Below, one piece after another: positions 642 to 41,573 of a DNA stretch of 64,000 nucleotides. Made by a program: the position numbers and the translations under genes. Numbering within the stretch: position 1 is the stretch's first letter; every line of letters starts with the position of its first letter. Source of the DNA: a bacterium (GTDB lineage: Bacteria; AUK180); NCBI GenBank assembly GCA_023144005.1, contig JAGLGN010000023.1, positions 53,191-117,190 of the forward strand. The letters are read 5' to 3'. The notes below the pieces were generated by a model, which made no database searches, had not been told where the DNA came from, and saw only the letters and a program-made list of their open reading frames with translations.

Positions 642-739
642 GTTGAATAAGAGATTGAAATACGTAATTGGACAATATATGTTGGCGATTCTTTATCCCT
701 CATTCAGGGACAAATATAAACTGATATTTAGGAGTGAGT

Positions 740-2362
740 ATGTATATTAAGAAGCTAAACATTGAGAATTTCAAGTGTTTCAAAGGAAAATTTTCGATTG
801 AACTCAATTCAGGTGTTAACATCTTAGTGGGTAACAATGAAACGGGAAAATCTACCATTCTTGAAGCAATACACTTAGCATTGCGCGGGGTACTCAATGG
901 TAGATATCTGAGGAATGAATTGAGTCAGTACCTTTTTAACAATGAGGTCGTTAATGAATATATTAATAGCCTAAAAACTGATAATCCGCAACCACCACCA
1001 TATATACTCATTGAAGTCTTTTTCGATGACATAGATTTTCCAATGTTTGAAGGGAACGGCAATAGTGAAAAAATACAAGAATGTGGACTTGCATTCAAAA
1101 TTAAATTTGATGATGGATTCAAAGATGAATATGAAGATTTAATCACACCTGCAAAAATAAATACTATTCCTGTGGAGTATTACAAAATATCATGGAAGTC
1201 CTTTGCGCGAGAACCTATAACTTCAAGGAGTATTCCCTTGAAATCCGTAGTTATAGACTCGTCTTCATATCGCTATCAGAACGGTTCCGACGTTTATATT
1301 TCAAGGATTATTCGCGATGATCTCGAAATAAGTGAAAAAGTAAATATGGCTCAAGCATACAGAATGCTGAAAGAAGAGTTTTCGAAAAACGATGCTATCA
1401 AAGAAATTAATAGGAAGATCACAGAAAAGACAAAAGTGAGCAATAAGAATCTCCACATATCCGTAGATTTGTCCTCATCCAATTCCTGGGAAACGGTACT
1501 AATGACCTATTTGGATGAAATACCGTTCCACCAAATAGGAAAGGGAGAGCAGTGTATTATTAAAACAAGTCTGGCTCTTGAGCATGAAAAGAGTGAAGAA
1601 GCTAATATGATATTGATTGAGGAACCTGAATGCCATTTGTCGCATACGAAACTTAATCAACTCCTGAAAAGTATTCGGGGAAAGTGTGATGAAAAGCAAA
1701 TTCTTATATCTACACACAGTAGTTTCGTCGCAAACAAATTGGGACTAGAGCATTTAATCTTTCTCAGCAATTCGAAGGTAGCAATGCTCAAGGACCTTAC
1801 GGCAGATACGCAAAAGTTTTTTCAAAAACTTCCAGGGTATCAGACGCTTAGATTAATCCTTTGCCAAAAAGCACTTCTTGTGGAAGGTCCTTCGGATGAA
1901 TTAATTGTACAGAAAGCCTATATGAAAAACAATGAGGGAAGGCTTCCTATTGAAGAAGGAATTGATGTGATTTCTGTAGGGCTTTCATTTAAAAGATTTC
2001 TTGAGATAGCTAAAAAACTTAAACATCCAGTCGCTGTGATTACGGATAATGATGGTGACTATGATGTTAATATAATAAAAAAATATGCAGATTATTCAAG
2101 TGAAGAGTATATTAAAATATGTGCAGATAATAGGAATCCATTGAAAACTCTTGAATATCAATTTGTTGATGCGAATAAAAATCAATTGGAAGTTCTTAGA
2201 AAAGCTTTAGTTATCAAGGAGTCAACCTATGACACAGAAGAAAAGGTAATTAAATACATGATAGATAATAAGACGACTTGGGCTCTCAGAGTATTTGAGT
2301 CGAATGAAGATGTAAATTATCCTAAGTATATCTTCAAGGCAGTAAAGTGGTGTAATGAGTGA
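740..2362 (+). CDS. gajA: Gabija GajA: OLD-family ATPase with TOPRIM nuclease domain
   Basis: This 540-residue protein has an ABC/SMC-like ATPase domain with Walker A GNNETGKST (residues 31-39) and Walker B ILIEEPECHLS (about 290-300). A C-terminal TOPRIM domain follows, with LLVEGPSDE (about 379-387) and VITDNDGDYD (about 432-441), which supply the glutamate and aspartates that bind metal. This is the OLD nuclease architecture. It overlaps the next gene, a UvrD-like helicase, by 8 bp, and that pair defines Gabija, in which GajA cuts DNA and GajB assists. I chose ATG 740 rather than GTG 734 because AGGAG at 730-734 is spaced correctly for 740. Length is close to known GajA proteins (about 580). 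The region is AT-rich compared with the dcw genes, suggesting horizontal transfer. Confidence 0.9.
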   Translation: MYIKKLNIENFKCFKGKFSIELNSGVNILVGNNETGKSTILEAIHLALRGVLNGRYLRNELSQYLFNNEVVNEYINSLKTDNPQPPPYILIEVFFDDIDFPMFEGNGNSEKIQECGLAFKIKFDDGFKDEYEDLITPAKINTIPVEYYKISWKSFAREPITSRSIPLKSVVIDSSSYRYQNGSDVYISRIIRDDLEISEKVNMAQAYRMLKEEFSKNDAIKEINRKITEKTKVSNKNLHISVDLSSSNSWETVLMTYLDEIPFHQIGKGEQCIIKTSLALEHEKSEEANMILIEEPECHLSHTKLNQLLKSIRGKCDEKQILISTHSSFVANKLGLEHLIFLSNSKVAMLKDLTADTQKFFQKLPGYQTLRLILCQKALLVEGPSDELIVQKAYMKNNEGRLPIEEGIDVISVGLSFKRFLEIAKKLKHPVAVITDNDGDYDVNIIKKYADYSSEEYIKICADNRNPLKTLEYQFVDANKNQLEVLRKALVIKESTYDTEEKVIKYMIDNKTTWALRVFESNEDVNYPKYIFKAVKWCNE

Positions 2363-3527
2363 AAATAAATTAATAATTGCTGCAGCAGGATCTGGAAAAA
2401 CCACCTACCTCGTTAATCAAGCTTTAGAAAGGAGTAAAATTGATAAAATTCTCATAACTACCTATACGGAAGCAAATGAAGCAGAGATAAAAAGTAAAAT
2501 TATTGAGAAGAAGAAGTGTATTCCCTCAAATATTTCCATACAGACATGGTTCTCGTTTTTATTGCATCATGGTGTTAGACCATATCAGAGTACTAATTAC
2601 CCGGATTTACATGAGTTGAATATTGGCTTTTTCCTATCGAATAATAAATCAGGGGGAAAATTAGATCAGAGGGGGAATCCTTTGTTTTCAAAAAAAGGAT
2701 TCCCTTTATATTGGAAAGAGGAGAATTATCTGAAGCACTATTTTACATCCTCAATGAGAATATATTCTGATAAGGTTTCAAAATTTGTTATTAGAACAAA
2801 TGAAGCTTGCAATAATGAAATTATTAATAGGATTAGTAGAATATATTCTCACGTTTACATAGATGAAGTTCAAGATTTAGCAGGATATGATTTAGAAATA
2901 ATAAAACTACTTTTCCAGTCATCTTCTTCAGTTTTCCTTGTTGGTGATCCACGCCAAGTAACATATTTGACGCATCATGAGCCGAAGCATAATCAATTCA
3001 AAGATGGAAAAATAAAGGATTTTGTTTTGAATAAATTGGGGAAACGAATCTGTTGTAATATTGACGAATCAACCCTACTGAAGTCACATCGCAATAATAG
3101 TCAGATATGTAATTATTCCTCAAAATTATTTCCTGAATATCCAATAGTTCTTCCCTGTGATTGCGAAGGATGTAGGAAAAGTGATTCTTCTCATAAGGGA
3201 GTATATTTGGTTGATATAAATGATTTGGATAGTTATCTAGATAAATTCACTCCTATTCAAATACGATGGAATATAAATATAAAGGTAAATCCGAAATTTC
3301 AATCTATTACTTTTGGATATTCAAAGGGAAAAACTTTTGATAGGGTGCTAATCTATCCTACATCTGATATGAGAAAATGGATATTAAACAATGGATATAA
3401 TTTGAAGAATAGCACACGATCAAAATTATATGTAGGAATTACAAGAGCACGGTTTAGTGTTGGTATTGTTATGTCTCATGATTCGAAAGCCGAGATCACT
3501 GGGATTCAAAGATATGTACCGAACTAG
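2355..3527 (+). CDS. gajB: Gabija GajB: UvrD/PcrA-like superfamily 1 helicase
   Basis: This 390-residue superfamily 1 helicase has motif I AAAGSGKTT (residues 9-17), motif II YIDEVQDL (about 168-175), motif III GDPRQ (about 198-202) and a motif VI-like VGITRAR (about 360-366). A cluster CDCEGCRKSD around residue 270 may bind a metal. It begins inside the last codons of gajA, so the two are translationally coupled. It is somewhat shorter than the roughly 490-residue GajB of Bacillus cereus, mostly through smaller insert domains, but no motif is missing. In Gabija, GajB contributes to ATP/nucleotide sensing and forms a complex with GajA. Assignment rests on the helicase motifs plus the OLD partner; a stand-alone UvrD paralogue is unlikely given the overlap. 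Confidence 0.88.
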   Translation: MSENKLIIAAAGSGKTTYLVNQALERSKIDKILITTYTEANEAEIKSKIIEKKKCIPSNISIQTWFSFLLHHGVRPYQSTNYPDLHELNIGFFLSNNKSGGKLDQRGNPLFSKKGFPLYWKEENYLKHYFTSSMRIYSDKVSKFVIRTNEACNNEIINRISRIYSHVYIDEVQDLAGYDLEIIKLLFQSSSSVFLVGDPRQVTYLTHHEPKHNQFKDGKIKDFVLNKLGKRICCNIDESTLLKSHRNNSQICNYSSKLFPEYPIVLPCDCEGCRKSDSSHKGVYLVDINDLDSYLDKFTPIQIRWNINIKVNPKFQSITFGYSKGKTFDRVLIYPTSDMRKWILNNGYNLKNSTRSKLYVGITRARFSVGIVMSHDSKAEITGIQRYVPN

Positions 3528-30034: not shown

Positions 30035-32116
30035 CTATCCAACTTTTTTGAACTCTGCATTGTCGCATGAAGGGCAAGGTGGTAAGGTGTCAGTGTTATT
30101 ATCCATTACCACAATTCGCCCGCATTTGGAACATTTGTACCTACCTTTTCCTGGGTTTTTTCCTGCTGAGAAAAACATACTTAATATTTCTCTTACTTTC
30201 TTTCTAACTTTAAAATTTTTATCATTTATTGATATATGAAGATATTTTAATGCTTTCTCTGTTTCTATTTCTCCTAATGCCTCAACACATGCAAGTTTTA
30301 TTTTTACAAACTCTTCATACAAATGAGGAATAATATAAATGATACCTAGTTCGTTGCCTATATTTCCAAGAATTTTTATTGCTGCAATCCTTTCGGGAAT
30401 AAACTCCTTTCTTAACAACATCTGTATAAAAGAAACAATATTTTCAAAATTTATCTTGCCGAGTGCCGAAGCGGCAGACATACGAACATAATCATTATCA
30501 TCTTTTAACGCTTCAATAAGATAAGGTATTGCCTTGTCAGCGCCGATTTTACCGAGTGCCGAAGCGGCATAAATACGAACATCGCCATTTTCATCTTTTA
30601 ATGCTTCAATAAGATAAGGGATTGCCTCTTCCGATCCGATTATACCGAGTGCCGAAGCGGCAGAACTACGAACATCATTATTTTCATCTTTTAACGTTTC
30701 AATAAGATAAGGGATTGCCTCTTCCGATCCGATTATACCGAGTGCCGAAGCGGCAGAACTACGAACATCGCCATTTTCATCTTTTAATGCTTCAATAAGA
30801 TAAGGTATTGTCTCTTCCGATCCGATTATACCGAGTGCCGAAGCAGCAGAGCTACGAACATAATTACTATCATCTTTTAACGTTTCAATAAGATAAGGTA
30901 TTGCCTCTTCCGATCCGATTATACTGAGTGCCGAAGCGGCAGACATACGAACATAATTATTATCATCTTTTAACGCTTCAATAAGATAAGGTACCGCATT
31001 TTCAGTGCCGATTTCACCGAGTGCCGAAGCGGCAGACATACGAACAGAATCATTATCATTTTTTAACGCTTTAATAAGATAAAGTACTGTCTTTTCCGAG
31101 TTGATTCTACCGAGTGCCGAAGCGGCATACTTACGAACATCATAATCTTCATCTTTTAATGCTTCAATAAGATAAGGCACTGCCTTTTCAGCGCCGATTT
31201 CACCGAGTGCCGAAGCGGCAGACATACGAACATAATTATTATCATCTTTTAACGCTTCAATAAGATAAGGTACTGCCTTTCCAGCGCCGATTTTACCGAG
31301 TGCCGAAGCGGCAGACATACGAACAGAATCATTATCATCTTTTAACGTTTCAATAAGATAAGGTACTGCCTTTTCAGCGCCGATTTCACCGAGTGCCGAA
31401 GCGGCAGAACTACGAACATAATCCTTATCATCTTTTAACGCTTTAATAAGATAAGGTACTGCCTTTTCAGCGCCGATTTCACCGAGTGCCGAAGCGGCAG
31501 AACTGAGAACAACATCCTTTCCATCTTCTAACGCTTCAATAAGATCAAGAACCGCCTTTTCAGCGCTGATTTCACCGAGTGCCGAAGCGGCAGAACTACG
31601 AACAAAATCATTTCCATCTTTTAGCGCTTTAATAAGATAAGGTACTGCCTTTTTAGCGCCGATTTCACCGAGTGCCGAAGCGGCAGAACTACGAACAAAA
31701 TCATTTCCATCTTTTAGTGCTTTAATAAGATAAGGTACTGCCTTTTTAGCGCCGATTTCACCGAGTGCCGAAGCGGCAGAATTACGAACATCACTATATT
31801 CTTTGTTATTGTTCAAAAGATCGATTAAATACTTTGTATACATTTTTTGAATTTCTCGTGTAAATCCCTTGAAAGTATCAATTGCATTTAATTTATCTGA
31901 TTTACTTTTTCCTTGAATAAATCTTAAAAAGCGTTCTTCTTCCGAAGTAACGTTGTCCTTCTCAATTAATGGGCTTAAAAGATCAAAATATATGCCAATT
32001 CTGTTCTCATCCTTAAAAAACGGCGGCTTGGATAATAAATCTTCTAAAAATAAATCACTTTTTGTATATTCTTTAATTGTATCAATACTTTTAATTTTAT
32101 CATTATTATTTTTCAT
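30035..32116 (-). CDS. HEAT-repeat protein with C-terminal zinc ribbon
   Basis: This 693-residue protein has an N-terminal helical part (1-109), then seventeen 31-residue HEAT/PBS-lyase type repeats (110-636) of consensus VRxSAASALGEIGxEKAVPY, and a C-terminal zinc ribbon (C662, C665 and C681, C684 by count) with CSKCG and CPSC. Fourteen repeats are nearly identical, while the last three are degenerate. HEAT solenoids bind proteins or nucleic acids. The zinc ribbon could contact nucleic acid. ATG 32116 overlaps the end of the KAP NTPase gene by 11 bp, so both come from one transcript. Function is unknown. The neighbourhood (restriction cassette, AT-rich island) suggests conflict with mobile DNA. 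Confidence 0.85.
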   Translation of the reverse strand: MKNNNDKIKSIDTIKEYTKSDLFLEDLLSKPPFFKDENRIGIYFDLLSPLIEKDNVTSEEERFLRFIQGKSKSDKLNAIDTFKGFTREIQKMYTKYLIDLLNNNKEYSDVRNSAASALGEIGAKKAVPYLIKALKDGNDFVRSSAASALGEIGAKKAVPYLIKALKDGNDFVRSSAASALGEISAEKAVLDLIEALEDGKDVVLSSAASALGEIGAEKAVPYLIKALKDDKDYVRSSAASALGEIGAEKAVPYLIETLKDDNDSVRMSAASALGKIGAGKAVPYLIEALKDDNNYVRMSAASALGEIGAEKAVPYLIEALKDEDYDVRKYAASALGRINSEKTVLYLIKALKNDNDSVRMSAASALGEIGTENAVPYLIEALKDDNNYVRMSAASALSIIGSEEAIPYLIETLKDDSNYVRSSAASALGIIGSEETIPYLIEALKDENGDVRSSAASALGIIGSEEAIPYLIETLKDENNDVRSSAASALGIIGSEEAIPYLIEALKDENGDVRIYAASALGKIGADKAIPYLIEALKDDNDYVRMSAASALGKINFENIVSFIQMLLRKEFIPERIAAIKILGNIGNELGIIYIIPHLYEEFVKIKLACVEALGEIETEKALKYLHISINDKNFKVRKKVREILSMFFSAGKNPGKGRYKCSKCGRIVVMDNNTDTLPPCPSCDNAEFKKVG
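30395..31789 (-). repeat. Tandem 93-bp coding repeats (15 units)
   Basis: Fifteen in-frame 93-bp units encode 31-residue HEAT repeats. The first fourteen (30488-31789) are very similar at DNA level, with a shared core GAGTGCCGAAGCGGCAGA on the + strand recurring every 93 bp. Differences cluster in the helix-loop residues. Confidence 0.9.
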
Positions 32117-33305
32117 TTTCTAAAACCCTTTCAATCTCGCCAAGATCCGCCGGTCTCTCACCCAGTTTTTCATATAATGCAGAATTTCTAAAATATATTA
32201 TAAGACATTTAATTAAAAGCTCGTTTTTTATTTTTCCATTTTTTATTTCCTCCTCAGCAATTCTATAATAGAGTAAATATGTATTCAAGAATAATTTAAT
32301 CCTACGAGGATTGTATTTCAATGCTTTAGCAATTATCAGTCTCCATTTTCCTAATATTACACTTAATTCCTTAGAAAGCCCATCAAAATAATTTTTTAAA
32401 TTTTCTTCTAATTTTATAGTGGGAAGATTGAATGGAACTTGGATAAATTTCTCAAGATATTCTTCCCCTCTAATAATTTTCTCTTCTTCTTCATTTGATG
32501 TAACTATTTCTTTATACTTGATTTCTAATCCTTTTTCAATTACTCTTTTATCAACCCCAATAACAAAAACACAATTTTTAACATACAAAAACAATTTTAT
32601 TTTTTCAAATATTATTATTACATTCTCAGGAGAACAGCGATCCAGATCGTCAATGAAAATTACTAATAATTTATTCTTTTGATTTCCTAGTATTTTATTA
32701 ATCGCCTTTTTAAATTTATCCTTAATTTTAATAAATTCACTTTTGTTTTCCAAATATTGATTCTTAAAATATTTTTCGGTTTTAAATATATCTTGAATTC
32801 CCATGGAACCGTTAGTCATTGTTTTTAAAAATAAATCACCTGAAAGCACTGCAATGGTATTAAAAAGCATTGTTGCTTTTTTCTTCTTTCTTATTTTTTT
32901 CTCGGCATTTTCATTCTTACCATATTTATTGTCAATTGTTTGCAATAAAGGTATTAATATTTCTTCCTCTTTTTCATATTGCCAGGCTTCAAAAAATACA
33001 GTTAATGTATTCCGCTCTTTCAAACTATTTTGAATTTGTTTCATTAAACTTGTTTTGCCACTTCCCCAATGCCCATGTATACCAATTGTAAAAGGTGTGT
33101 TTTTTACCGAGTTAAGTATTAAGTCAACAAGAATTTTAGAGTATTTATTAAAACCAAGTAAGTCATTCTCTACAGCTTCATCTGAAGCAAAACCAATATT
33201 ATCGGGAATTTCTATTTTCAATTTTTCTTCCGCATATTGTGGATGTAATGAATCATTATTACTAAAATAGACTTTTCTCTTTTTATCATCATTCGATTCT
33301 TTCAC
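32106..33305 (-). CDS. KAP-family P-loop NTPase
   Basis: This 399-residue protein has Walker A GHWGSGKTS (78-86), the KAP family FFEAWQYEK (104-112) and Walker B LLVIFIDDLDRCSPE (213-227). A region around 144-165 is hydrophobic and might be the interrupted membrane insertion seen in many KAP NTPases, but it is weak. Late RIIAKALKYNPRRIKLFLN-like helices match the KAP C-terminal part. KAP NTPases work as signalling or membrane-associated NTPases, some in phage resistance. The start is GTG 33305 without an obvious ribosome binding site. A possible promoter TTGAAA-17 bp-TAACAT (minus strand, 33312-33340) ends only 7 bp before the GTG. Confidence 0.88.
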   Translation of the reverse strand: MKESNDDKKRKVYFSNNDSLHPQYAEEKLKIEIPDNIGFASDEAVENDLLGFNKYSKILVDLILNSVKNTPFTIGIHGHWGSGKTSLMKQIQNSLKERNTLTVFFEAWQYEKEEEILIPLLQTIDNKYGKNENAEKKIRKKKKATMLFNTIAVLSGDLFLKTMTNGSMGIQDIFKTEKYFKNQYLENKSEFIKIKDKFKKAINKILGNQKNKLLVIFIDDLDRCSPENVIIIFEKIKLFLYVKNCVFVIGVDKRVIEKGLEIKYKEIVTSNEEEEKIIRGEEYLEKFIQVPFNLPTIKLEENLKNYFDGLSKELSVILGKWRLIIAKALKYNPRRIKLFLNTYLLYYRIAEEEIKNGKIKNELLIKCLIIYFRNSALYEKLGERPADLGEIERVLENEK

Positions 33306-33475: not shown

Positions 33476-33504
33476 TTGAGAAAATACATACAATATGGTA
33501 AAAT
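33476..33504 (+). promoter_or_regulatory. Promoter of the restriction cassette
   Basis: TTGAGA (33476-33481), 17-bp spacer and TAAAAT (33499-33504) with an extended -10 TGG (33496-33498). It lies 28 bp before the mod start and diverges from the KAP/HEAT promoter region. Confidence 0.6.
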
Positions 33505-33531
33505 ACAACACAGATTATGAAGGATTTGCAG

Positions 33532-35280
33532 ATGGACGGGAAATCATTGGATATAACAGAAAATAGGTTAAAAAAATTACGAGAATATTTTCCAGAGGTA
33601 TTTACCGAAGGAAAGATTGATTGGGATAAACTGAAAGCCGCTCTTGGTGATGATATAGAATTCAAAGATGAGAGATATGTTCTGAACTGGGCAGGGAAAT
33701 CAGATGCTTTCAGAACTCTTCAGAGACAGACTGCCGCAACTCTTTCCCCCTGTAAAGAAGAATCGATCGATTTTGATGAAACTGAAAATATATTCATCGA
33801 GGGTGAAAATCTTGAAGTTCTGAAAATTCTTCAAAAATCCTATTACGGAAAAATCAAAATGATATATATTGATCCTCCATACAATACCGGAAATGACTTT
33901 GTTTACTCCGATAAATTCAAGGAAGACAGGAAAGAATATGAAAAGAGATCTGGGATCAAGAATGAAGAGGGATTATTGCAAAGAGAAGGCCTGATAAAAA
34001 ACACTAAGGACAAAGGTCATTATCACTCAAATTGGCTATCAATGATGTATCCTCGCTTGTTTCTTGCAAAGAATTTACTAGGAGATGATGGAGTGATCTT
34101 TGTTTCAATTGATTATAACGAAGAACATAATCTGAGATTAATAATGAATGAGATATTTGGGGAAGATAATTATAAAAACACTTTCTATGTTTCGCGAGTA
34201 AAAAAAAATATACAGGAAACAGAATTAGTTGTAAGAACCAATTTTGGCATCAATTCAATCATGTTTTATGGCAAATCCAAAAATTCTACCATCATTCCTC
34301 CGAAAAAAAAGCAGAAAAAAAAGGATCGATGGCACGCTTTTGATGCACCAGGTATTCGAGAGACAATGGAATATGAAATATTTGGATGGAAACCACCAAA
34401 TGGGCGCCACTGGATGTATGAGGAAAAAAGGGCAAAAGGTATGATTCGAGATGGAGTTTTAAGAAGAAATCCAAAAACGGGAAAACCTCAATACTTTCTA
34501 GAAGCCAATGAATATACACTTTTAGATACAAATTGGACTGATTTACAAGAATCGGATTCGACTTGGATTAATAATGGTGGAAAGAATATTTCACTTATTA
34601 GAAGAATGTTAGAGATGATAAATAATGAAGGAATTATTTTAGACTTCTTTTCCGGTTCTAGCACATCTGCTCATGCTGTTCTTGATTTGAACAGGGAAGA
34701 TGGAAAAAGTCGGAAATTCATCTGTGTTCAGATGCCTGAAGAAACAGACGAAAAATCGGAAGCATTTAAGGCAGGATACAATACCATTGCGGAAATTGGC
34801 AAAAACCGGATTCGTAGTGTAATTAAAAAGATCAAGAATGAACAGGAATCAAAGCTTGATATCAATGGAGATCATAATAAACAGGACTTGGGATTCAAGG
34901 TATTCAAATTGCGAAATTCAAATTTCAAAGCATGGCGTTCTGATATCCAATCAGAAGAGGAGTTAAATGAGCAGCTGAGAATACATCTTGAACCACTTGA
35001 TGAAAATGCTGAAACAGAAAATATCCTCTATGAGCTTCTTCTTAAATCAGGAATACCATTGACCGCAAAGATTGAAGAGAAAAACAATTATTACATTATT
35101 AATGATAATGAGCTGATATTGATTCTTGACAAAATTGATGAGAACATTATTGGGCGGGTTATTGAAATAAAACCTCAAAAGGTTATTACATTAGATCGAT
35201 TGTTTAACAACAACGATCAATATAAAACAAACGCAATGCTTCAGATGAAGGATGCAGGAATTGAGATAAAAATCATATGA
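33532..35280 (+). CDS. mod: Type III restriction system methyltransferase (Mod)
   Basis: Mod methylates adenine and provides sequence specificity of type III systems. The 582-residue protein has the catalytic motif IV DPPYNTG (D114-Y117), then target-recognition sequence, and the SAM-binding motif I DFFSGSST (371-378). That order (IV before I) is the beta class of type III Mod enzymes. GENLEVLKILQKSYYGKIK before DPPY is also typical. ATG 33532 follows AAGGA (33520-33524) with good spacing; the upstream ATG 33517 has no ribosome binding site. The end overlaps the next gene by 4 bp (ATGA). It is AT-rich like the rest of the island. Confidence 0.94.
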   Translation: MDGKSLDITENRLKKLREYFPEVFTEGKIDWDKLKAALGDDIEFKDERYVLNWAGKSDAFRTLQRQTAATLSPCKEESIDFDETENIFIEGENLEVLKILQKSYYGKIKMIYIDPPYNTGNDFVYSDKFKEDRKEYEKRSGIKNEEGLLQREGLIKNTKDKGHYHSNWLSMMYPRLFLAKNLLGDDGVIFVSIDYNEEHNLRLIMNEIFGEDNYKNTFYVSRVKKNIQETELVVRTNFGINSIMFYGKSKNSTIIPPKKKQKKKDRWHAFDAPGIRETMEYEIFGWKPPNGRHWMYEEKRAKGMIRDGVLRRNPKTGKPQYFLEANEYTLLDTNWTDLQESDSTWINNGGKNISLIRRMLEMINNEGIILDFFSGSSTSAHAVLDLNREDGKSRKFICVQMPEETDEKSEAFKAGYNTIAEIGKNRIRSVIKKIKNEQESKLDINGDHNKQDLGFKVFKLRNSNFKAWRSDIQSEEELNEQLRIHLEPLDENAETENILYELLLKSGIPLTAKIEEKNNYYIINDNELILILDKIDENIIGRVIEIKPQKVITLDRLFNNNDQYKTNAMLQMKDAGIEIKII

Positions 35281-38200
35281 CTCTAAAGAGTATTTATGAT
35301 AGGCTTAACCTTACACCAGAAAACGGTCTATGCTTTATTGATGAAAGCAATTGGAAAAACAAATTATCAAAGTATACAGAGAAGGTTATTGTTGAAAGGC
35401 TTAAGCCGAAATCCTTTTTCTGCTTTGACAATAAACCTTTAATTTTATTTTTTGATTCACCTCAAAATAGGAAGGAGTTATTTAGAGATATTTGGAATTT
35501 CAATGAAGCACCTATAATTATTATCAATGAAGAAACTACTATTGACATTTATAACGGTTTTTCGCTAGATAAGGAATATCATGATTTAGATAAACTCGAT
35601 GATGCAGGCAATCTCGATAATTTCTCTTATTTCGAACTTATTACTGGTAAATCATTGGAAAAATACACTGCACAGTTCAGCCAGAAAAATCGAATTAATT
35701 ATAACTTACTTAGAAATATAAAAGAAGCACGCTCTATTCTTACTAAGTATTTCGATTTAACAGACTACACAGCAAATGCCCTAATTGGGAGATGTATCTT
35801 TGTAAGATATTTAATTGACAGATGTGTTCGAATCGATTTTGAAAATCAGCCAAGATTATGGACAAATGAAGACTTTTGTAACCTCTTAGGGGATCAAGAA
35901 AAAACCGTGAAATTCTTTCAACATATTGGTTCTAAATTCAACGGAGAGGCATTTCTAATTTCTGATGATGAATTGAAAGAAGTAGATGCGGGGGTATTCA
36001 AAGTTTTGAAAGATCTTCTAAGTGGAACACATTTATCAAGTGGTCAGTTATCATTGTTTAATATCTATGATTTTTCAATTATTCCTATAGAATTTATCAG
36101 CAATATTTATGAATACTTCATTGGGAAGGAAAATCAAGCAAAGAAAGGAGCATATTATACCCCCAAATTTCTTGTAGACTATATCTTAAATCAAACAATT
36201 GACAAGCATTATAATGAAAATCCAGATGAATATAATTGTAAAATTCTTGATCCTGCTTGTGGTTCTGGGATATTTCTAGTAGAAGCATTGAGAAGAATAA
36301 TTGAAAGATATAGAGATTTGAATGGTAATAGTATTAGTAATAAGAAACTAAATGAGATTGCAGAATCAAATATCTATGGCATTGATAAAGACAATAATGC
36401 TGTTAATGTTGCCATTTTCTCTATCTACTTAACTCTTCTTGATTACCAAGAACCAAAAGATATAGAAAACTTTCAATTTCCAAATTTACGGGAAAAAGGC
36501 AATTTTCATGATTCTGATTTCTTTGACTTAAATGCGAAGTTTAATGAATTAACAAAAATGGAGTTTGATTTTATTGTGGGTAATCCTCCGTGGAAGAGGG
36601 GATCCTCTGAAGATGCGCTATTCTTAACTTATGTCGAAAATCGAATCAAAGAAGAAACCGAGAGAACGCAATGCAGTTCACTTCCTGAAGTTAGTGATAA
36701 GCAAATTGCACAAGCATTCTTATTACGAGTCAGTGACTTCTGCGGACAAAAGACATTATGTTCACTAGTAATCACTAGTAAAATATTATATAATCTGAAG
36801 GCGAGAAAATTCCGAGAGTATTTGCTGAAAAACTATTTCATTGATAGACTTCTCGAACTCTCACCTGTTCGAAGGGAAATATTCGATGAATCCAACGATG
36901 TTTCTATCGCCCCAGCTGCTGTAGTATTCTTTCGATATGCGTTTGGAGAGGATACATTGCTTAACAAAATGACACACATTTGTCTGAAAAAGAACAGAAT
37001 GTTCTCATTATTCAAGATCTTTGTAATACAAAGAGATGACATAAATATAGTTATTCAGAGAAAGTTGTTGGAATATGATTGGCTTTGGAAATTATTAGTA
37101 TATGGATCATTTCTGGATTTTAGACTGATAGAAAGACTGAAAAGCAAGTATGAAAATATCAACTCGGTTCTCAAGGATTTGGAGAATACCGAAGTTAGAC
37201 AGGGAATTATGGTGGGTGGAGCTGATCGTAATGATGTAACTTACCTTTCAGGACAGAAACTATTGGATACAACAAATGATATCAAGCCGTTTTATGTTAA
37301 TAGCGAGCCAGAAAATACGTGGACTATAGAATATGTACATAGAGCAAGGACACTAGATTTTTTTTCTCCTCCTGTGCTGATAGTGAAAGAGGGAACTGAC
37401 AACAAATTACATGCAATATCAGGAATTTCATATTCTCAAAATATATTCAAGAGTTCCTTGACTGGAATTAAGACGGGGCTTAACAATATTAACATTCTTA
37501 GGATAATTAATGGTATTCTAAATTCTGACTTGTATTCATATTTTATCTTGCATACTGCATCCACAATTGGAATTGAGCGTGAACAAGTCCATGATTTTGA
37601 GAAATGGAATACCCCCTTTGTTTATAATGATGTGATTGCTTCTCTTGTTGAGAATCTAGAAAAAGTGAGTAAACAATTGTATAGTAAAAATAATGTATTG
37701 AATTCAAACAGAAATGATTTAGATAAGAAAAGGGAAAAACTTATTTCACTATTGAATCAGGAGATTTTTAGAAGTTACCAATTAAATGATATGGAATTGG
37801 CTCTGGTCGATTATTCGAGAAGTATTTTAGTACCGCTAATTATGAAACAAGAGAACATGTATAAAGATATATTGTCAGCAATTCATTTTAAAAGCGATGT
37901 TTTGGTAAAATATATAAATATATTCTTCTCAAGATTTAAGAGATCATTAAAAGGAAAGCGTCTTGTTGCAGAAGTATATTTTACAGAGAGCATAATTGGA
38001 GTATTTTTTCGAGTAGTTTCAAAAAAAAATCCTGGAAAAAACGGAATTGTATGGAATGAAATTCGTAATGTCGAATTACTGAAGAAAATAATATCATTAG
38101 GTGTAGAAGAGATTTCTACATCCCTATTTATTCAGAAAGATATACGAGGATTTGAAAGAGATGGATTTTACATTATTAAGCCAAACGAAAAAAAACTGTG

Positions 38201-38285
38201 GCATCTCGTAAATGGTTATTTAGATGCCAATGATTTCATGGATTCAATTCTTAGGGAAGGCAGAAGGATTTACAGTGAGCAATAA
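35277..38285 (+). CDS. N6-adenine methylase of Eco57I/type IIG type, nested in the type III operon
   Basis: This 1002-residue protein has GAYYTPKFLVDYIL (291-304, motif X region), DPACGSGIFLVEAL (325-338, SAM-binding motif I) and NPPW (436-439, catalytic motif IV), followed by a long C-terminal part that would hold target recognition. The arrangement is that of gamma-class N6-adenine methylases in type IIG/Eco57I proteins. The N-terminal 280 residues show no clear nuclease motif. It overlaps mod by 4 bp, and the downstream nuclease-like gene begins inside its end, so it is part of the mod-res operon. Type III systems need only mod and res, so this gene is extra. It could be a second specificity, a split IIG enzyme or a BREX-like methylase. 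Confidence 0.88.
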   Translation: MTLKSIYDRLNLTPENGLCFIDESNWKNKLSKYTEKVIVERLKPKSFFCFDNKPLILFFDSPQNRKELFRDIWNFNEAPIIIINEETTIDIYNGFSLDKEYHDLDKLDDAGNLDNFSYFELITGKSLEKYTAQFSQKNRINYNLLRNIKEARSILTKYFDLTDYTANALIGRCIFVRYLIDRCVRIDFENQPRLWTNEDFCNLLGDQEKTVKFFQHIGSKFNGEAFLISDDELKEVDAGVFKVLKDLLSGTHLSSGQLSLFNIYDFSIIPIEFISNIYEYFIGKENQAKKGAYYTPKFLVDYILNQTIDKHYNENPDEYNCKILDPACGSGIFLVEALRRIIERYRDLNGNSISNKKLNEIAESNIYGIDKDNNAVNVAIFSIYLTLLDYQEPKDIENFQFPNLREKGNFHDSDFFDLNAKFNELTKMEFDFIVGNPPWKRGSSEDALFLTYVENRIKEETERTQCSSLPEVSDKQIAQAFLLRVSDFCGQKTLCSLVITSKILYNLKARKFREYLLKNYFIDRLLELSPVRREIFDESNDVSIAPAAVVFFRYAFGEDTLLNKMTHICLKKNRMFSLFKIFVIQRDDINIVIQRKLLEYDWLWKLLVYGSFLDFRLIERLKSKYENINSVLKDLENTEVRQGIMVGGADRNDVTYLSGQKLLDTTNDIKPFYVNSEPENTWTIEYVHRARTLDFFSPPVLIVKEGTDNKLHAISGISYSQNIFKSSLTGIKTGLNNINILRIINGILNSDLYSYFILHTASTIGIEREQVHDFEKWNTPFVYNDVIASLVENLEKVSKQLYSKNNVLNSNRNDLDKKREKLISLLNQEIFRSYQLNDMELALVDYSRSILVPLIMKQENMYKDILSAIHFKSDVLVKYINIFFSRFKRSLKGKRLVAEVYFTESIIGVFFRVVSKKNPGKNGIVWNEIRNVELLKKIISLGVEEISTSLFIQKDIRGFERDGFYIIKPNEKKLWHLVNGYLDANDFMDSILREGRRIYSEQ

Positions 38286-38952
38286 CCTAGATGTGTCATT
38301 ATTTCCTACAACAAGAGAGATTTATGAAAACGAATTCAATAATATTCTTTCTGGGATAGCCTATTGCTATAAGAGGTTATTGAAAGATGGGCAAGTTGTC
38401 CCGCCAAATAATGAAAATAGAATTAGAGATGTGCTTTTAATTAACTATTTAAAAAATAGAGTGATAAAAGAAAAGGCCAATCTAAATGAATTTCGTTTTG
38501 ATAGAGAGATTCAAGAAGATGCAACGAAGGGAAGAGTTGATATTCGCGTAATAACAAAAAACGATTTTGAGAATGATGATGCCTACTATATAATTGAGTG
38601 CAAAAGATTGGATAACAAAAATCTAACTGGAACTTCAGGATTAAATGCAGAATATATAAAAGAAGGAATAATGCGATTTGTCAATGTTCAATATTCATCT
38701 TATTATGAAATAAATGGAATGATAGGTTTTATTATAGAAAAAATGAAAATAAATAAAAACATTAGTAACTTGAACAATTTGATGAAAACAAAGATAACAC
38801 AAGCAAATGTGAAAAAACAAATGACTAGACTTAAAGAAATAAAGAAATTCAGATATTCTTATTTTTCAAAGCATAGGACAAAGGCCGGGAATACGATAAG
38901 GCTTTGTCATTTAATGCTTGATTTTTCAAAGAATCTTGAGTGCGGCTCTTGA
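38275..38952 (+). CDS. PD-(D/E)XK nuclease-like protein, nested in the type III operon
   Basis: This 225-residue protein has GRVDIRV (D89) and YYIIECKRLD (E108, K110), which match the D...ExK active site of PD-(D/E)XK nucleases, each at a strand end. No other domain is recognised. I chose GTG 38275 because AGAAGGA (38262-38268) is 6 bp upstream, which makes an 11-bp overlap with the methylase gene; the frame is open further upstream. It overlaps the res gene by 13 bp. The obvious hypothesis is that it is the cutting partner of the 1002-residue methylase, a split type II-like enzyme. It could also be an inactive DNA-binding version. Confidence 0.75.
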   Translation: MSNNLDVSLFPTTREIYENEFNNILSGIAYCYKRLLKDGQVVPPNNENRIRDVLLINYLKNRVIKEKANLNEFRFDREIQEDATKGRVDIRVITKNDFENDDAYYIIECKRLDNKNLTGTSGLNAEYIKEGIMRFVNVQYSSYYEINGMIGFIIEKMKINKNISNLNNLMKTKITQANVKKQMTRLKEIKKFRYSYFSKHRTKAGNTIRLCHLMLDFSKNLECGS

Positions 38953-41573
38953 AATTCCATTTTGATCCGAACCAGAAATTTCAGCTTGACGCTATTAGAT
39001 CAATAGTTGATATATTTGACGGACAGACACTAAAAACGGGTGAATTCTCCATTGTTTTTGAAGATGATCAGAATCTATTTCACACTGAATACATCGGAAA
39101 CAATCTAAAAATTGGCAAAGATCAAATTTTGGAAAATCTTCAAGAAGTGCAAAAGCAAAACGAACTTCAGATTTCAAAAGAACTTGACGGGATGAATTTC
39201 TCAGTCGAGATGGAAACCGGGACCGGCAAGACATATGTCTATCTAAGAACGATATGTGAATTGAATAGGAAGTATGGTTTCAAGAAATTTGTTATTACTG
39301 TCCCCTCTATTGCCATCAAGGAAGGTGTTCTGAAAAATCTGGAAATCACACACGAACACTTTCAGAATCTTTATGACAATGTTCCGGTTGACTATTTTGT
39401 TTATGAGTCAAAGAATGTTTCTAAGTTAAGACAATTTGCGTCTTCCAATACCATCCAAATCCTTGTGATCAATATTGACTCGTTCGCTAAGGATGAAAAC
39501 ATTATTAACCGGGCAAATGATAAGCTGGTCGGCAAAAAACCGATTGAGTTTGTGAGGGGAACCCATCCCATAGTAATTGTGGATGAACCTCAAAATATGG
39601 AGACCGAAAAACGGAAAAAAGCGATTGAGAATCTTTCTCCTTTGTGTACTCTCAGGTATTCAGCTACTCATACTAACCTGTATAATTTGGTTTATTCCCT
39701 TGACCCTGTAAAAGCCTATGACCTTGGTCTGGTGAAGCAAATCGAGGTGGATTCGATTGTGACAGAAAACGACTTCAATGATGCCTATGTACTTCTTGAG
39801 AGAATCACTGCGGGCAAAACTCATATTACGGCAAAGCTCAGGATAGATGCAGAGCAGGTGAAAGGCGCTATTAGAAAAAGTGTCACTGTCAAAATAGGCG
39901 ATGACCTTTATAGAAAATCAAACCAGAGACAGGTTTATTTCACCGGATATAAGATAAATAGCATTGATGCTGAAAATGGCTATATTGAATTTTCAAATGG
40001 AAAATCCCTTTTTCTGGGAAATAATATAGGGAGTAATCCCGATGAACTTTTAAGGGTTCAGATAGAAAAGGCAGTTGAAGAGCATTTCTGCAAGGAACAG
40101 AGATTTTCAGGAAAAGGGATCAAAGTGCTTTCGCTGTTTTTCATTGACAGGGTGATGAATTACAGAGGCTATGATGCTACTGGTAACCCAGTAAAAGGAA
40201 AGTACGCTTTATGGTTTGAAGAAGCATTCAAAAAGAATATTTCAAAAGATAGGTTCAAAGGTATTATCCCTTTTGATGTGGAGCAAGTTCATAATGGTTA
40301 TTTTGCCCAAGATAAAAAAGGGCATTGGAAAAATACCAAAGGTATTTCAAAAGCTGATGATGATACTTATCATTTGATAATGAAGGACAAGGAAAAGCTA
40401 CTTGATATTGCTGAACCTTTAAGATTTATTTTCAGTCACTCGGCTCTTCGTGAAGGTTGGGACAATCCGAATGTATTTCAAATATGTACTTTGAATGAGA
40501 CTCGTTCTGAATTAAAAAAAAGACAGGAAATAGGAAGAGGGATGCGGTTGCCTGTAAATCAGCAAGGTGAAAGGATCCAAGACAAGAACATTAATCATCT
40601 GACCGTAATAGCAAATGAATCATATGAGGATTTTGCAAAGACTCTTCAGATGGAGATAGAAAAGGATTGTGGCGTATCATTCGGTAGTAGGATAAAGAAT
40701 AAAGCGAAAAGGAAAACTGTGAAGTATAGAAAGGGTTTCGAGCTTGACGACAAATTCAAAGAAATCTGGGAGCGGATTAAATATAAGACAAGTTACAAAG
40801 TTGAATACGACAGCAGTGATCTGATAGAAAAAGCAGCTATGTCCGTAAGAAGGATGCCTGAGATCAACCGCGCAAAGATCAAAGTGTCAAAAGCAATTAT
40901 AGATATTAATAAGAAAGGTATTTCAACCACTCCCAAGTCTTCAAGAGTTGTAGACAGTACATATAATATTAGAATTCCCAACATACTATTTTATATTGAA
41001 CAGAGAATTGGACTTACAAGGTCAACTATCTGGGAAATCTTGAATTCCTCGGAGCGAAGCGGAGATATTCTGATTAATCCTCAAATGTTTCTGGATAATG
41101 CTGTAAATGCTATTCAAGATGTCTTGTTTGACTTGATGATAGACGGTATTAAATATGAAAAGTTTGGTGATTTGTGTTACGAAATGCATCTCTTCGAGGA
41201 TTTTGATATTCATGTAAATGACCTGACATTCAGCGTATCTGATAAAGAAAAAACGATTTACAAGAATCTACTTCCTCTTGATTCCGGAGTCGAATATGAA
41301 TTTGCACAAGAGTGTGAAAGTAGAGAAGATATTGAGTTTTATTTCAAGCTTCCCTCTTGGTTCAAGATAAAAACGCCCATTGGGAATTATAATCCTGATT
41401 GGGCTCTGATCAAAAAGAATGAAAAGACGGTTTACTTCGTCGCTGAAACTAAATCGGCAGGACAGGAACTAAGAGAGAGTGAAAAAAGAAAGATAAGATG
41501 CGGATATGCTCATTTTAATGAGTTTGAGAATGTTGAATACAAGCAGGTTACTACTGTACAAGAATTGGATTAA
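38940..41573 (+). CDS. res: Type III restriction endonuclease subunit (Res)
   Basis: Res is the ATP-dependent helicase/nuclease of type III systems. The 877-residue protein starts with a RecA-like domain: Walker A METGTGKTY (91-99), DEPQN motif II (215-219), SATH motif III and RQEIGRGMRLPV motif VI (about 529-540). The C-terminal endonuclease domain has NPDWALI (P819, D820) and AETK (E836, K838), the PD...ExK site. All parts are intact. Start is GTG 38940, or TTG 38949, which gives the more usual KFHFDPNQ opening. It overlaps the nuclease-like gene, closing a four-gene operon. Confidence 0.95.
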   Translation: MRLLKFHFDPNQKFQLDAIRSIVDIFDGQTLKTGEFSIVFEDDQNLFHTEYIGNNLKIGKDQILENLQEVQKQNELQISKELDGMNFSVEMETGTGKTYVYLRTICELNRKYGFKKFVITVPSIAIKEGVLKNLEITHEHFQNLYDNVPVDYFVYESKNVSKLRQFASSNTIQILVINIDSFAKDENIINRANDKLVGKKPIEFVRGTHPIVIVDEPQNMETEKRKKAIENLSPLCTLRYSATHTNLYNLVYSLDPVKAYDLGLVKQIEVDSIVTENDFNDAYVLLERITAGKTHITAKLRIDAEQVKGAIRKSVTVKIGDDLYRKSNQRQVYFTGYKINSIDAENGYIEFSNGKSLFLGNNIGSNPDELLRVQIEKAVEEHFCKEQRFSGKGIKVLSLFFIDRVMNYRGYDATGNPVKGKYALWFEEAFKKNISKDRFKGIIPFDVEQVHNGYFAQDKKGHWKNTKGISKADDDTYHLIMKDKEKLLDIAEPLRFIFSHSALREGWDNPNVFQICTLNETRSELKKRQEIGRGMRLPVNQQGERIQDKNINHLTVIANESYEDFAKTLQMEIEKDCGVSFGSRIKNKAKRKTVKYRKGFELDDKFKEIWERIKYKTSYKVEYDSSDLIEKAAMSVRRMPEINRAKIKVSKAIIDINKKGISTTPKSSRVVDSTYNIRIPNILFYIEQRIGLTRSTIWEILNSSERSGDILINPQMFLDNAVNAIQDVLFDLMIDGIKYEKFGDLCYEMHLFEDFDIHVNDLTFSVSDKEKTIYKNLLPLDSGVEYEFAQECESREDIEFYFKLPSWFKIKTPIGNYNPDWALIKKNEKTVYFVAETKSAGQELRESEKRKIRCGYAHFNEFENVEYKQVTTVQELD

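What the first reader, a model, noticed from the sequence alone, without database searches (positions are those of the whole stretch)
33476..41573. Composite restriction cassette: N6 methylase and PD-(D/E)XK nuclease nested between type III mod and res
Four genes overlap head to tail (4, 11 and 13 bp) behind one promoter: mod, a 1002-residue Eco57I-type methylase, a 225-residue nuclease-like protein and res. A plain type III system needs only mod and res. The inserted pair looks like a split type II system or a second specificity bound to the type III machine. I know no named system with this exact layout, although I cannot search for one.
Basis: partly seen in the sequence, partly recalled or inferred. 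Interest (0 to 1): 0.82.

Follow-up and report, generated by a model that had tools for sequence, protein, structure and literature searches.

The report
Two-gene restriction system inside type III operon
A complete, normally free-standing two-gene DNA methylation and cutting system sits in the gap between the two genes of an ordinary type III restriction system, a gap that in related bacteria holds other defence or toxin-like genes or nothing, so the locus is best read as nested defences and not as one new machine.

Summary
The four-gene operon is real (mod, M, N, res; 33532-41573), tightly coupled and catalytically intact by motif. The order recurs: eight loci including the window (Auribacterota, Bacteroidota, Kiritimatiellota) plus two partial ones. 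M and N are a partnership of their own: N lies directly behind M in 70 of 74 relatives, and 51 of 57 assessable loci have no mod or res. N is a PD-(D/E)XK nuclease (invariant D89, E108, K110; AlphaFold pLDDT 93). M is a type IIG-like methylase whose N-terminal nuclease position carries no catalytic motif. The mod-res junction is a variable slot: a same-family genome has the orthologous mod and res with a Fic protein there; others hold RhuM, Bro-N, Abi_C or nothing. All full-length embedded Res fall in one Res subfamily, whereas embedded M are scattered on the M tree, which suggests few entries into the slot and later allele exchange. One relative kept M-N after its mod decayed. Best reading: an independent split type IIG-like system nested in, and probably co-transcribed with, a complete type III system. 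A single composite machine is not supported, but physical contact was not tested. Accessory genes nested in R-M operons are known; the M-N subtype and its repeated nesting were not found in the papers searched.

The parts
33476..33504 (+). putative sigma-70 promoter TTGAGA-17-TAAAAT with TG before the second hexamer
   Evidence: 10/12 consensus match; similar element precedes a second, decayed mod in sister species G003. Such matches are as frequent in shuffles.
33532..35280 (+). mod: type III DNA methyltransferase, 582 aa from the preferred start (587 aa from ATG 33517); DPPY at residue 119 and FSGSST at residue 378 of the 587-aa form; central recognition region differs from its orthologue
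   Evidence: (MTase_III, E 3e-166)
35277..38285 (+). M: 1002-aa N6-adenine methylase with recognition domain, type IIG-like architecture (DPACGSG 325, NPPW 436); PADLOC PDLC03603 over its full length
   Evidence: E 1e-260; AF2 pLDDT 87.5
35370..35606 (+). M residues 32-110: N-terminal alpha/beta domain lying where type IIG enzymes carry their nuclease; no D...ExK motif conserved in 70 sequences
   Evidence: (DrdV and BpuSI alignments start at M residues 36 and 29)
37194..38066 (+). M residues 640-930: low-conservation target-recognition region (limits approximate), exchanged between close relatives
38275..38952 (+). N: 225-aa PD-(D/E)XK nuclease, partner of M; E47, D89, E108-C-K110
   Evidence: (pLDDT 93.1)
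38949..41573 (+). res: type III restriction subunit, 874 aa from TTG 38949 (877 aa from GTG 38940); SF2 helicase and C-terminal endonuclease domain PDW...ETK
33683..41573 (+). segment missing in the sister species, where the first 164 bp of mod are joined to the sequence following res, within a short similar sequence

Best explanation
The locus is two restriction-modification systems nested and probably co-expressed. Mod and Res form an ordinary type III system. M and N form an independent two-gene system that works like a type IIG enzyme cut in two: M methylates adenine at its target and supplies sequence recognition, while N supplies the DNA-cutting active site in trans, probably docking on M, whose own N-terminal nuclease position is catalytically empty. 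The M-N cassette occupies the mod-res junction, a slot that in relatives carries other accessory genes or nothing. Tight gene overlaps keep res translation coupled to whatever precedes it. Entry into the slot was rare and confined to one Res subfamily; afterwards M-N alleles, mostly their recognition region, were exchanged with the larger free-standing pool. Shown: gene content, recurrence, free-standing M-N, other slot contents, catalytic motifs, predicted folds. Inferred: co-expression, recruitment of N by M, independent action of the two systems, exchange by recombination.
For: N directly behind M in 70 of 74 loci with enough sequence; N-profile hits in 295 genomes of one order mostly lie behind an M-like gene; M-N also alone on alphaproteobacterial plasmids and, for weaker hits, in viral contigs. 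Free-standing in 51 of 57 assessable loci. Slot: same-family G001 has orthologous mod (80% and 60% in two blocks) and res (70% aa) with a Fic protein instead of M-N; others RhuM, Bro-N, Abi_C, 23S_rRNA_IVP or empty. Identity matrices of seven embedded loci: mod-res r 0.94, M-N 0.80, cross pairs 0.61-0.74. L126/L128: Res 93% identical, M 61%, N 59%. L115: mod reduced to its two ends, no res found, M-N intact. L104/L114: M N-terminus and start of the methylase 92-100%, region beyond about 24-72%, N 96%, so one N goes with two recognition regions. N fold and motif.
Against: No expression, methylome or cleavage data. All eight embedded loci keep the order mod-M-N-res with tight junctions, and all full-length embedded Res fall in one subfamily, which is more specific than a neutral slot and leaves room for functional coupling. 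N also diverges in several pairs with changed recognition regions (L136/L138, L124/L141, L128/L170), so N may read DNA itself in some members. Covariation of N with M domains is weak (partial r 0.11-0.22). M:N docking was not modelled.
Confidence: 0.74

Rival explanations
1. One composite machine: the four proteins act together, with M and N adding a second recognition sequence or a second nuclease to the Mod-Res complex.
For: Same four-gene order in eight loci from several phyla with tight overlaps; full-length embedded Res all in one Res subfamily; cross correlations of 0.61-0.74 are not zero.
Against: M-N is complete and usually found without mod and res; it persists where mod is decayed and no res is found (L115); within the same Res clade the slot can hold Fic or RhuM or be empty; M-N differs strongly between loci whose Res are 93% identical.
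Confidence: 0.12
2. Ordinary type II pair: N recognises the target on its own and M only protects it; its position between mod and res is a passive insertion.
For: Separate methylase and nuclease genes; N at 225 aa is large enough to be a complete restriction enzyme, and its structural neighbours are mostly such enzymes; N diverges along with the recognition region in several pairs.
Against: N stays 96% identical between L104 and L114 while the recognition region of M is replaced. M is much larger than a plain methylase and has type IIG-like architecture. N tracks the N-terminal domain of M more than the recognition region.
Confidence: 0.22
3. The insertion is a recent chance event in this genome with no wider meaning.
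For: Only the window had M of this family among 386 diverse genomes searched.
Against: Seven other embedded loci and two partial ones; well-supported branches force at least three changes of the label on the Res tree and six on the M tree. The sister species carries a deletion scar with mod remains, so a type III operon at this site predates the split, although the scar cannot show that M-N was in it.
Confidence: 0.04

Closest known systems
Type III restriction-modification (EcoP1I/EcoP15I kind)
   Same: Mod and Res families, catalytic motifs, operon order mod then res; the Mod recognition region varies between conserved ends, as described for EcoP1/EcoP15 (PMC3874151)
   Different: mod and res are not contiguous: two further genes lie between them
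Type IIG/IIL enzymes (MmeI, DrdV, BpuSI)
   Same: M has the helical connector, NPPW methylase and recognition domain of these enzymes; recognition-region exchange leaves the rest of the system unchanged
   Different: Type IIG carries the nuclease in the same chain (PMC4081073); here no nuclease motif is conserved at that place and the nuclease is a separate protein
PADLOC family PDLC03603 (REase_MTase_IIG)
   Same: M matches it over its full length
   Different: The model covers M only; the window's N has no hit in Pfam, PADLOC or NCBIfam, so tools would call a one-gene type IIG
Accessory genes embedded in R-M operons (PrrC in EcoprrI; HEPN, RhuM, Doc/Fic neighbours of R-M genes)
   Same: A second defence or toxin gene sits in an R-M operon (PMC3710099, PMC12707154); RhuM and Fic are found in this same slot in relatives
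   Different: Here the cargo is a second complete restriction-modification system, not a toxin
CamA and BREX PglX/BrxX methylases
   Same: Closest solved folds of the methylase part of M (CamA Z 28.5, BrxX Z 24.6)
   Different: None of the other BREX genes is in the operon, and matches to BREX models lie far below their cut-offs

Membership tests
Type III restriction-modification | Mod: beta-type N6/N4 methylase with DPPY and FxGxx motifs | tested here: met
Type III restriction-modification | Res: SF2 helicase core plus C-terminal PD-(D/E)XK endonuclease | tested here: met
   ResIII, RE_endonuc, GTGKT, DEPQ, PDW...ETK
Type III restriction-modification | mod and res contiguous, two genes sufficient | tested here: not met
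   M and N lie between them; relatives with an empty slot do have contiguous mod-res
Type III restriction-modification | ATP-dependent cleavage needing two inversely oriented unmethylated sites | not testable with these tools
   needs biochemistry
Type IIG enzyme (for M) | gamma-class NPPY/F/W methylase followed by a recognition region | tested here: met
   NPPW at 436; structural matches to MmeI, DrdV, BpuSI
Type IIG enzyme (for M) | nuclease and methylase in one polypeptide | tested here: not met
   no conserved D...ExK in M residues 1-135 across 70 sequences; nuclease encoded separately as N
Type IIG enzyme (for M) | cleavage stimulated by or dependent on AdoMet, restriction and modification sharing one specificity module | tested here: inconclusive
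   constant N with exchanged recognition region in L104/L114 fits shared specificity; AdoMet dependence not testable
PD-(D/E)XK nuclease (for N) | core fold and D...(E)xK active site | tested here: met
   D89, E108, K110 invariant in 70 sequences; order H-E-E-E-H-E; second-look matches led by OkrAI and BglII with MunI, SwaI, EcoRV also listed, all Z under 8 and Foldseek alone not significant; 20 of 70 members match PDDEXK_9
BREX / DISARM / MADS | core partner genes and model scores above cut-off | tested here: not met
   M scores 54 against a cut-off of 720 for MAD2 and below cut-off for all PglX models; no other core gene in the operon

The most novel reading that the evidence does not exclude
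M-N is an undescribed widespread subtype of restriction-modification, a type IIG-like enzyme in which the nuclease has moved to a separate subunit and the old nuclease domain became its docking site; and one type III subfamily carries a dedicated mod-res slot into which this system and toxins are loaded and exchanged, giving two-layer protection in one operon.
Probability: 0.4. Interest if true: 0.68.

Novelty: new variant of a known kind. Interest (0 to 1): 0.52.

Why it matters
If right, defence annotation misses the nuclease half of a restriction family spread over many bacterial phyla and some methanogens, and files M as a single-gene type IIG enzyme. The natural recognition-region exchanges give a ready route to enzymes of new specificity. 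The mod-res slot is a predictable place to look for unknown defence genes, as hsd operons were for PrrC, and the pair Mod-Res plus M-N is a clean test of whether nested systems cooperate or merely travel together.

Tried and rejected
Single-protein scan of viral contigs with M found nothing; the alignment-based scan found relatives. PDLC03603 in 386 relatives and N in 98 relatives: only the window, so the genus-level route was dropped for the GTDB contig scan. Phages: no N, only partial M matches. Foldseek alone gave no significant match for N; the second look gave restriction enzymes at Z up to 6.8, a weak score. Profile search of solved structures found no relative of N. Considered and rejected: BREX, DISARM and MADS membership of M (scores far below cut-off); a role for the divergent KAP/HEAT genes in the operon (opposite strand, separately absent in the sister species). 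Paper searches for genes between mod and res, or for a split type IIG, found no description of this layout; most subscription papers and REBASE are not covered.

Full report
WHAT IS THERE. The window holds four overlapping + strand genes: mod, a 1002-residue methylase (M), a 225-residue protein (N) and res. Mod and Res are normal type III subunits with intact motifs. M has Eco57I/N6_Mtase domains, DPACGSG and NPPW motifs, and matches PADLOC PDLC03603 over its full length. The window's N has no match in Pfam, PADLOC or NCBIfam, but 20 of 70 family members match Pfam PDDEXK_9.

THE ORDER RECURS. A scan of GTDB contigs with an alignment of M relatives gave 80 loci with 31-54% identity. Gene-order analysis found mod-M-N-res in L094 (Auribacterota), L110, L116, L126, L128 and L170 (Bacteroidota) and L134 (Kiritimatiellota); L094 and L110 are cut by contig ends inside res and mod. 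L115 and L172 keep parts of the arrangement. N and res overlap by 4 bp in these loci (in L110 an earlier res start was listed, but the same ATGA junction is present), and by TTGA in the window if res starts at 38949.

THE PAIR IS USUALLY ALONE. N lies directly behind M in 70 of 74 loci with enough sequence. Of 57 loci where both flanks are visible, 6 carry type III genes (5 full operons and L115), so 51 are free-standing. In an even sample of 393 genomes of the order to which the L128 genome (a Bacteroidales bacterium) belongs, 8 had M and only that genome itself is embedded. M-N pairs at 21-24% identity to the window's M also stand alone on alphaproteobacterial plasmids. N-profile hits in 295 genomes of that order mostly have an M-like gene directly upstream.

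THE SLOT. A search for Mod relatives gave 26 of 386 genomes. Among those with both mod and res in view, about half have other genes between them: Fic, RhuM, Bro-N, Abi_C, 23S_rRNA_IVP or unassigned proteins; the rest are empty. The clearest case is G001, of the window's own family: its mod matches in two blocks at 80% and 60% identity around a non-matching central region, its res matches at 70% (69% nt over 2644 bases), the homology stops at the end of mod and resumes at the start of res, and a 361-residue Fic protein lies between.

HISTORY. On a tree of 86 M proteins the embedded label needs eight changes, six of them forced by well-supported branches. On a Res tree the embedded loci with full-length Res, window included, lie in one 10-row clade together with G001 (Fic), L207 (RhuM) and L208 (empty) and need three changes. 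Embedded loci were found through M and the others through Mod, so frequencies are biased, but the confinement to one Res subfamily is not produced by that. Pairwise identities correlate at 0.94 for mod-res, 0.80 for M-N and 0.61-0.74 across. L126 and L128 share 93% of Res but only 61% of M and 59% of N. L128 and L170 share M ends at 84-93% nt around a replaced middle. I infer few entries into the slot and later exchange of M-N alleles. In L115 the mod reading frame holds only residues matching 1-65 and 500-587, no res is found in the 2.3 kb after N, and M-N is intact, which suggests that M-N can outlast the type III genes.

THE SISTER SPECIES. G003, of the same genus, has both flanks at 96% nt identity. 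It carries the first 164 bp of mod joined to the sequence just after res, the junction lying in a short stretch that is similar at both ends, and it lacks the KAP/HEAT genes. A type III operon therefore stood here before the split; the scar cannot show whether M-N was in it. Fragments of a second decayed type III system lie nearby.

HOW M-N WORKS. N models at pLDDT 93 with the core order of PD-(D/E)XK enzymes; D89, E108, C109 and K110 are invariant in 70 sequences and E47 nearly so. Fold comparison is weak but led by restriction enzymes such as OkrAI and BglII (Z 6.8 and 6.5; Foldseek alone not significant). M models at pLDDT 87.5 and matches CamA, MmeI, BrxX, DrdV and BpuSI; alignments with DrdV and BpuSI start at M residues 36 and 29, in the domain where those enzymes carry their nuclease, yet no D...ExK is conserved there. 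In L104 and L114 M is 92-100% identical through its N-terminus and the start of the methylase, falls to about 24-72% beyond, and ends at 88%, while N is 96% identical. One N thus goes with two recognition regions, which favours recognition by M and cleavage by N. N identity tracks the M N-terminal domain (partial r 0.22, p 0.001) more than the recognition region (0.11, p 0.013) after the methylase core is regressed out; the effect is small. Other pairs show N diverging with M, so recognition by N is not excluded.

COMPARISON AND NOVELTY. By the review definition type IIG enzymes keep nuclease and methylase in one chain (PMC4081073), so M-N works like type IIG but fails that defining feature. 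Toxin-like genes embedded in R-M operons are known (PMC3710099, PMC12707154). I found no paper describing M-N or a second R-M system nested between mod and res, but REBASE and most subscription papers could not be searched. I file the finding as a new variant of a known kind.

LIMITS. There are no expression, methylation or cleavage data; most loci are metagenome assemblies; trees used quick searches with some long branches; M:N and M:Res complexes were not modelled; the mod-res slot was surveyed only around this Mod.

Noticed in passing
window 30035-33305 (- strand): A KAP-family NTPase (399 aa) and a 693-aa HEAT-repeat protein with a C-terminal zinc-ribbon-like end, divergent from the operon and absent from the sister species G003; possibly another defence pair.
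   Followed up: partly
window 734-3527 (+ strand): A 542-aa ATPase with a likely TOPRIM part followed with 8-bp overlap by a 390-aa UvrD-like helicase, resembling a Gabija pair, in a second low-GC stretch. Recognised by eye only.
   Followed up: no
L289:6188-6551: Fragments of a second, decayed type III system (mod start, pieces of res) in the sister species, with a promoter-like element similar to the window's.
   Followed up: partly
L115:1602-2051: A mod gene reduced to its two ends in frame, with M-N intact and no res found: a possible snapshot of M-N outliving its host operon.
   Followed up: yes
L147:5113-10973: A weakly M-like gene (958 aa) directly in front of M (995 aa) and N.
   Followed up: no
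L145: Contig titled Helicobacter pylori PMSS1, but its M groups with Sulfurimonas and Sulfurovum; the title or the binning looks wrong.
   Followed up: no
L212:4914-6397 and L218:9111-11293: Unassigned proteins in the mod-res slot (345 aa; a four-gene set) without Pfam matches for those tested; candidates for unknown accessory defence genes.
   Followed up: no
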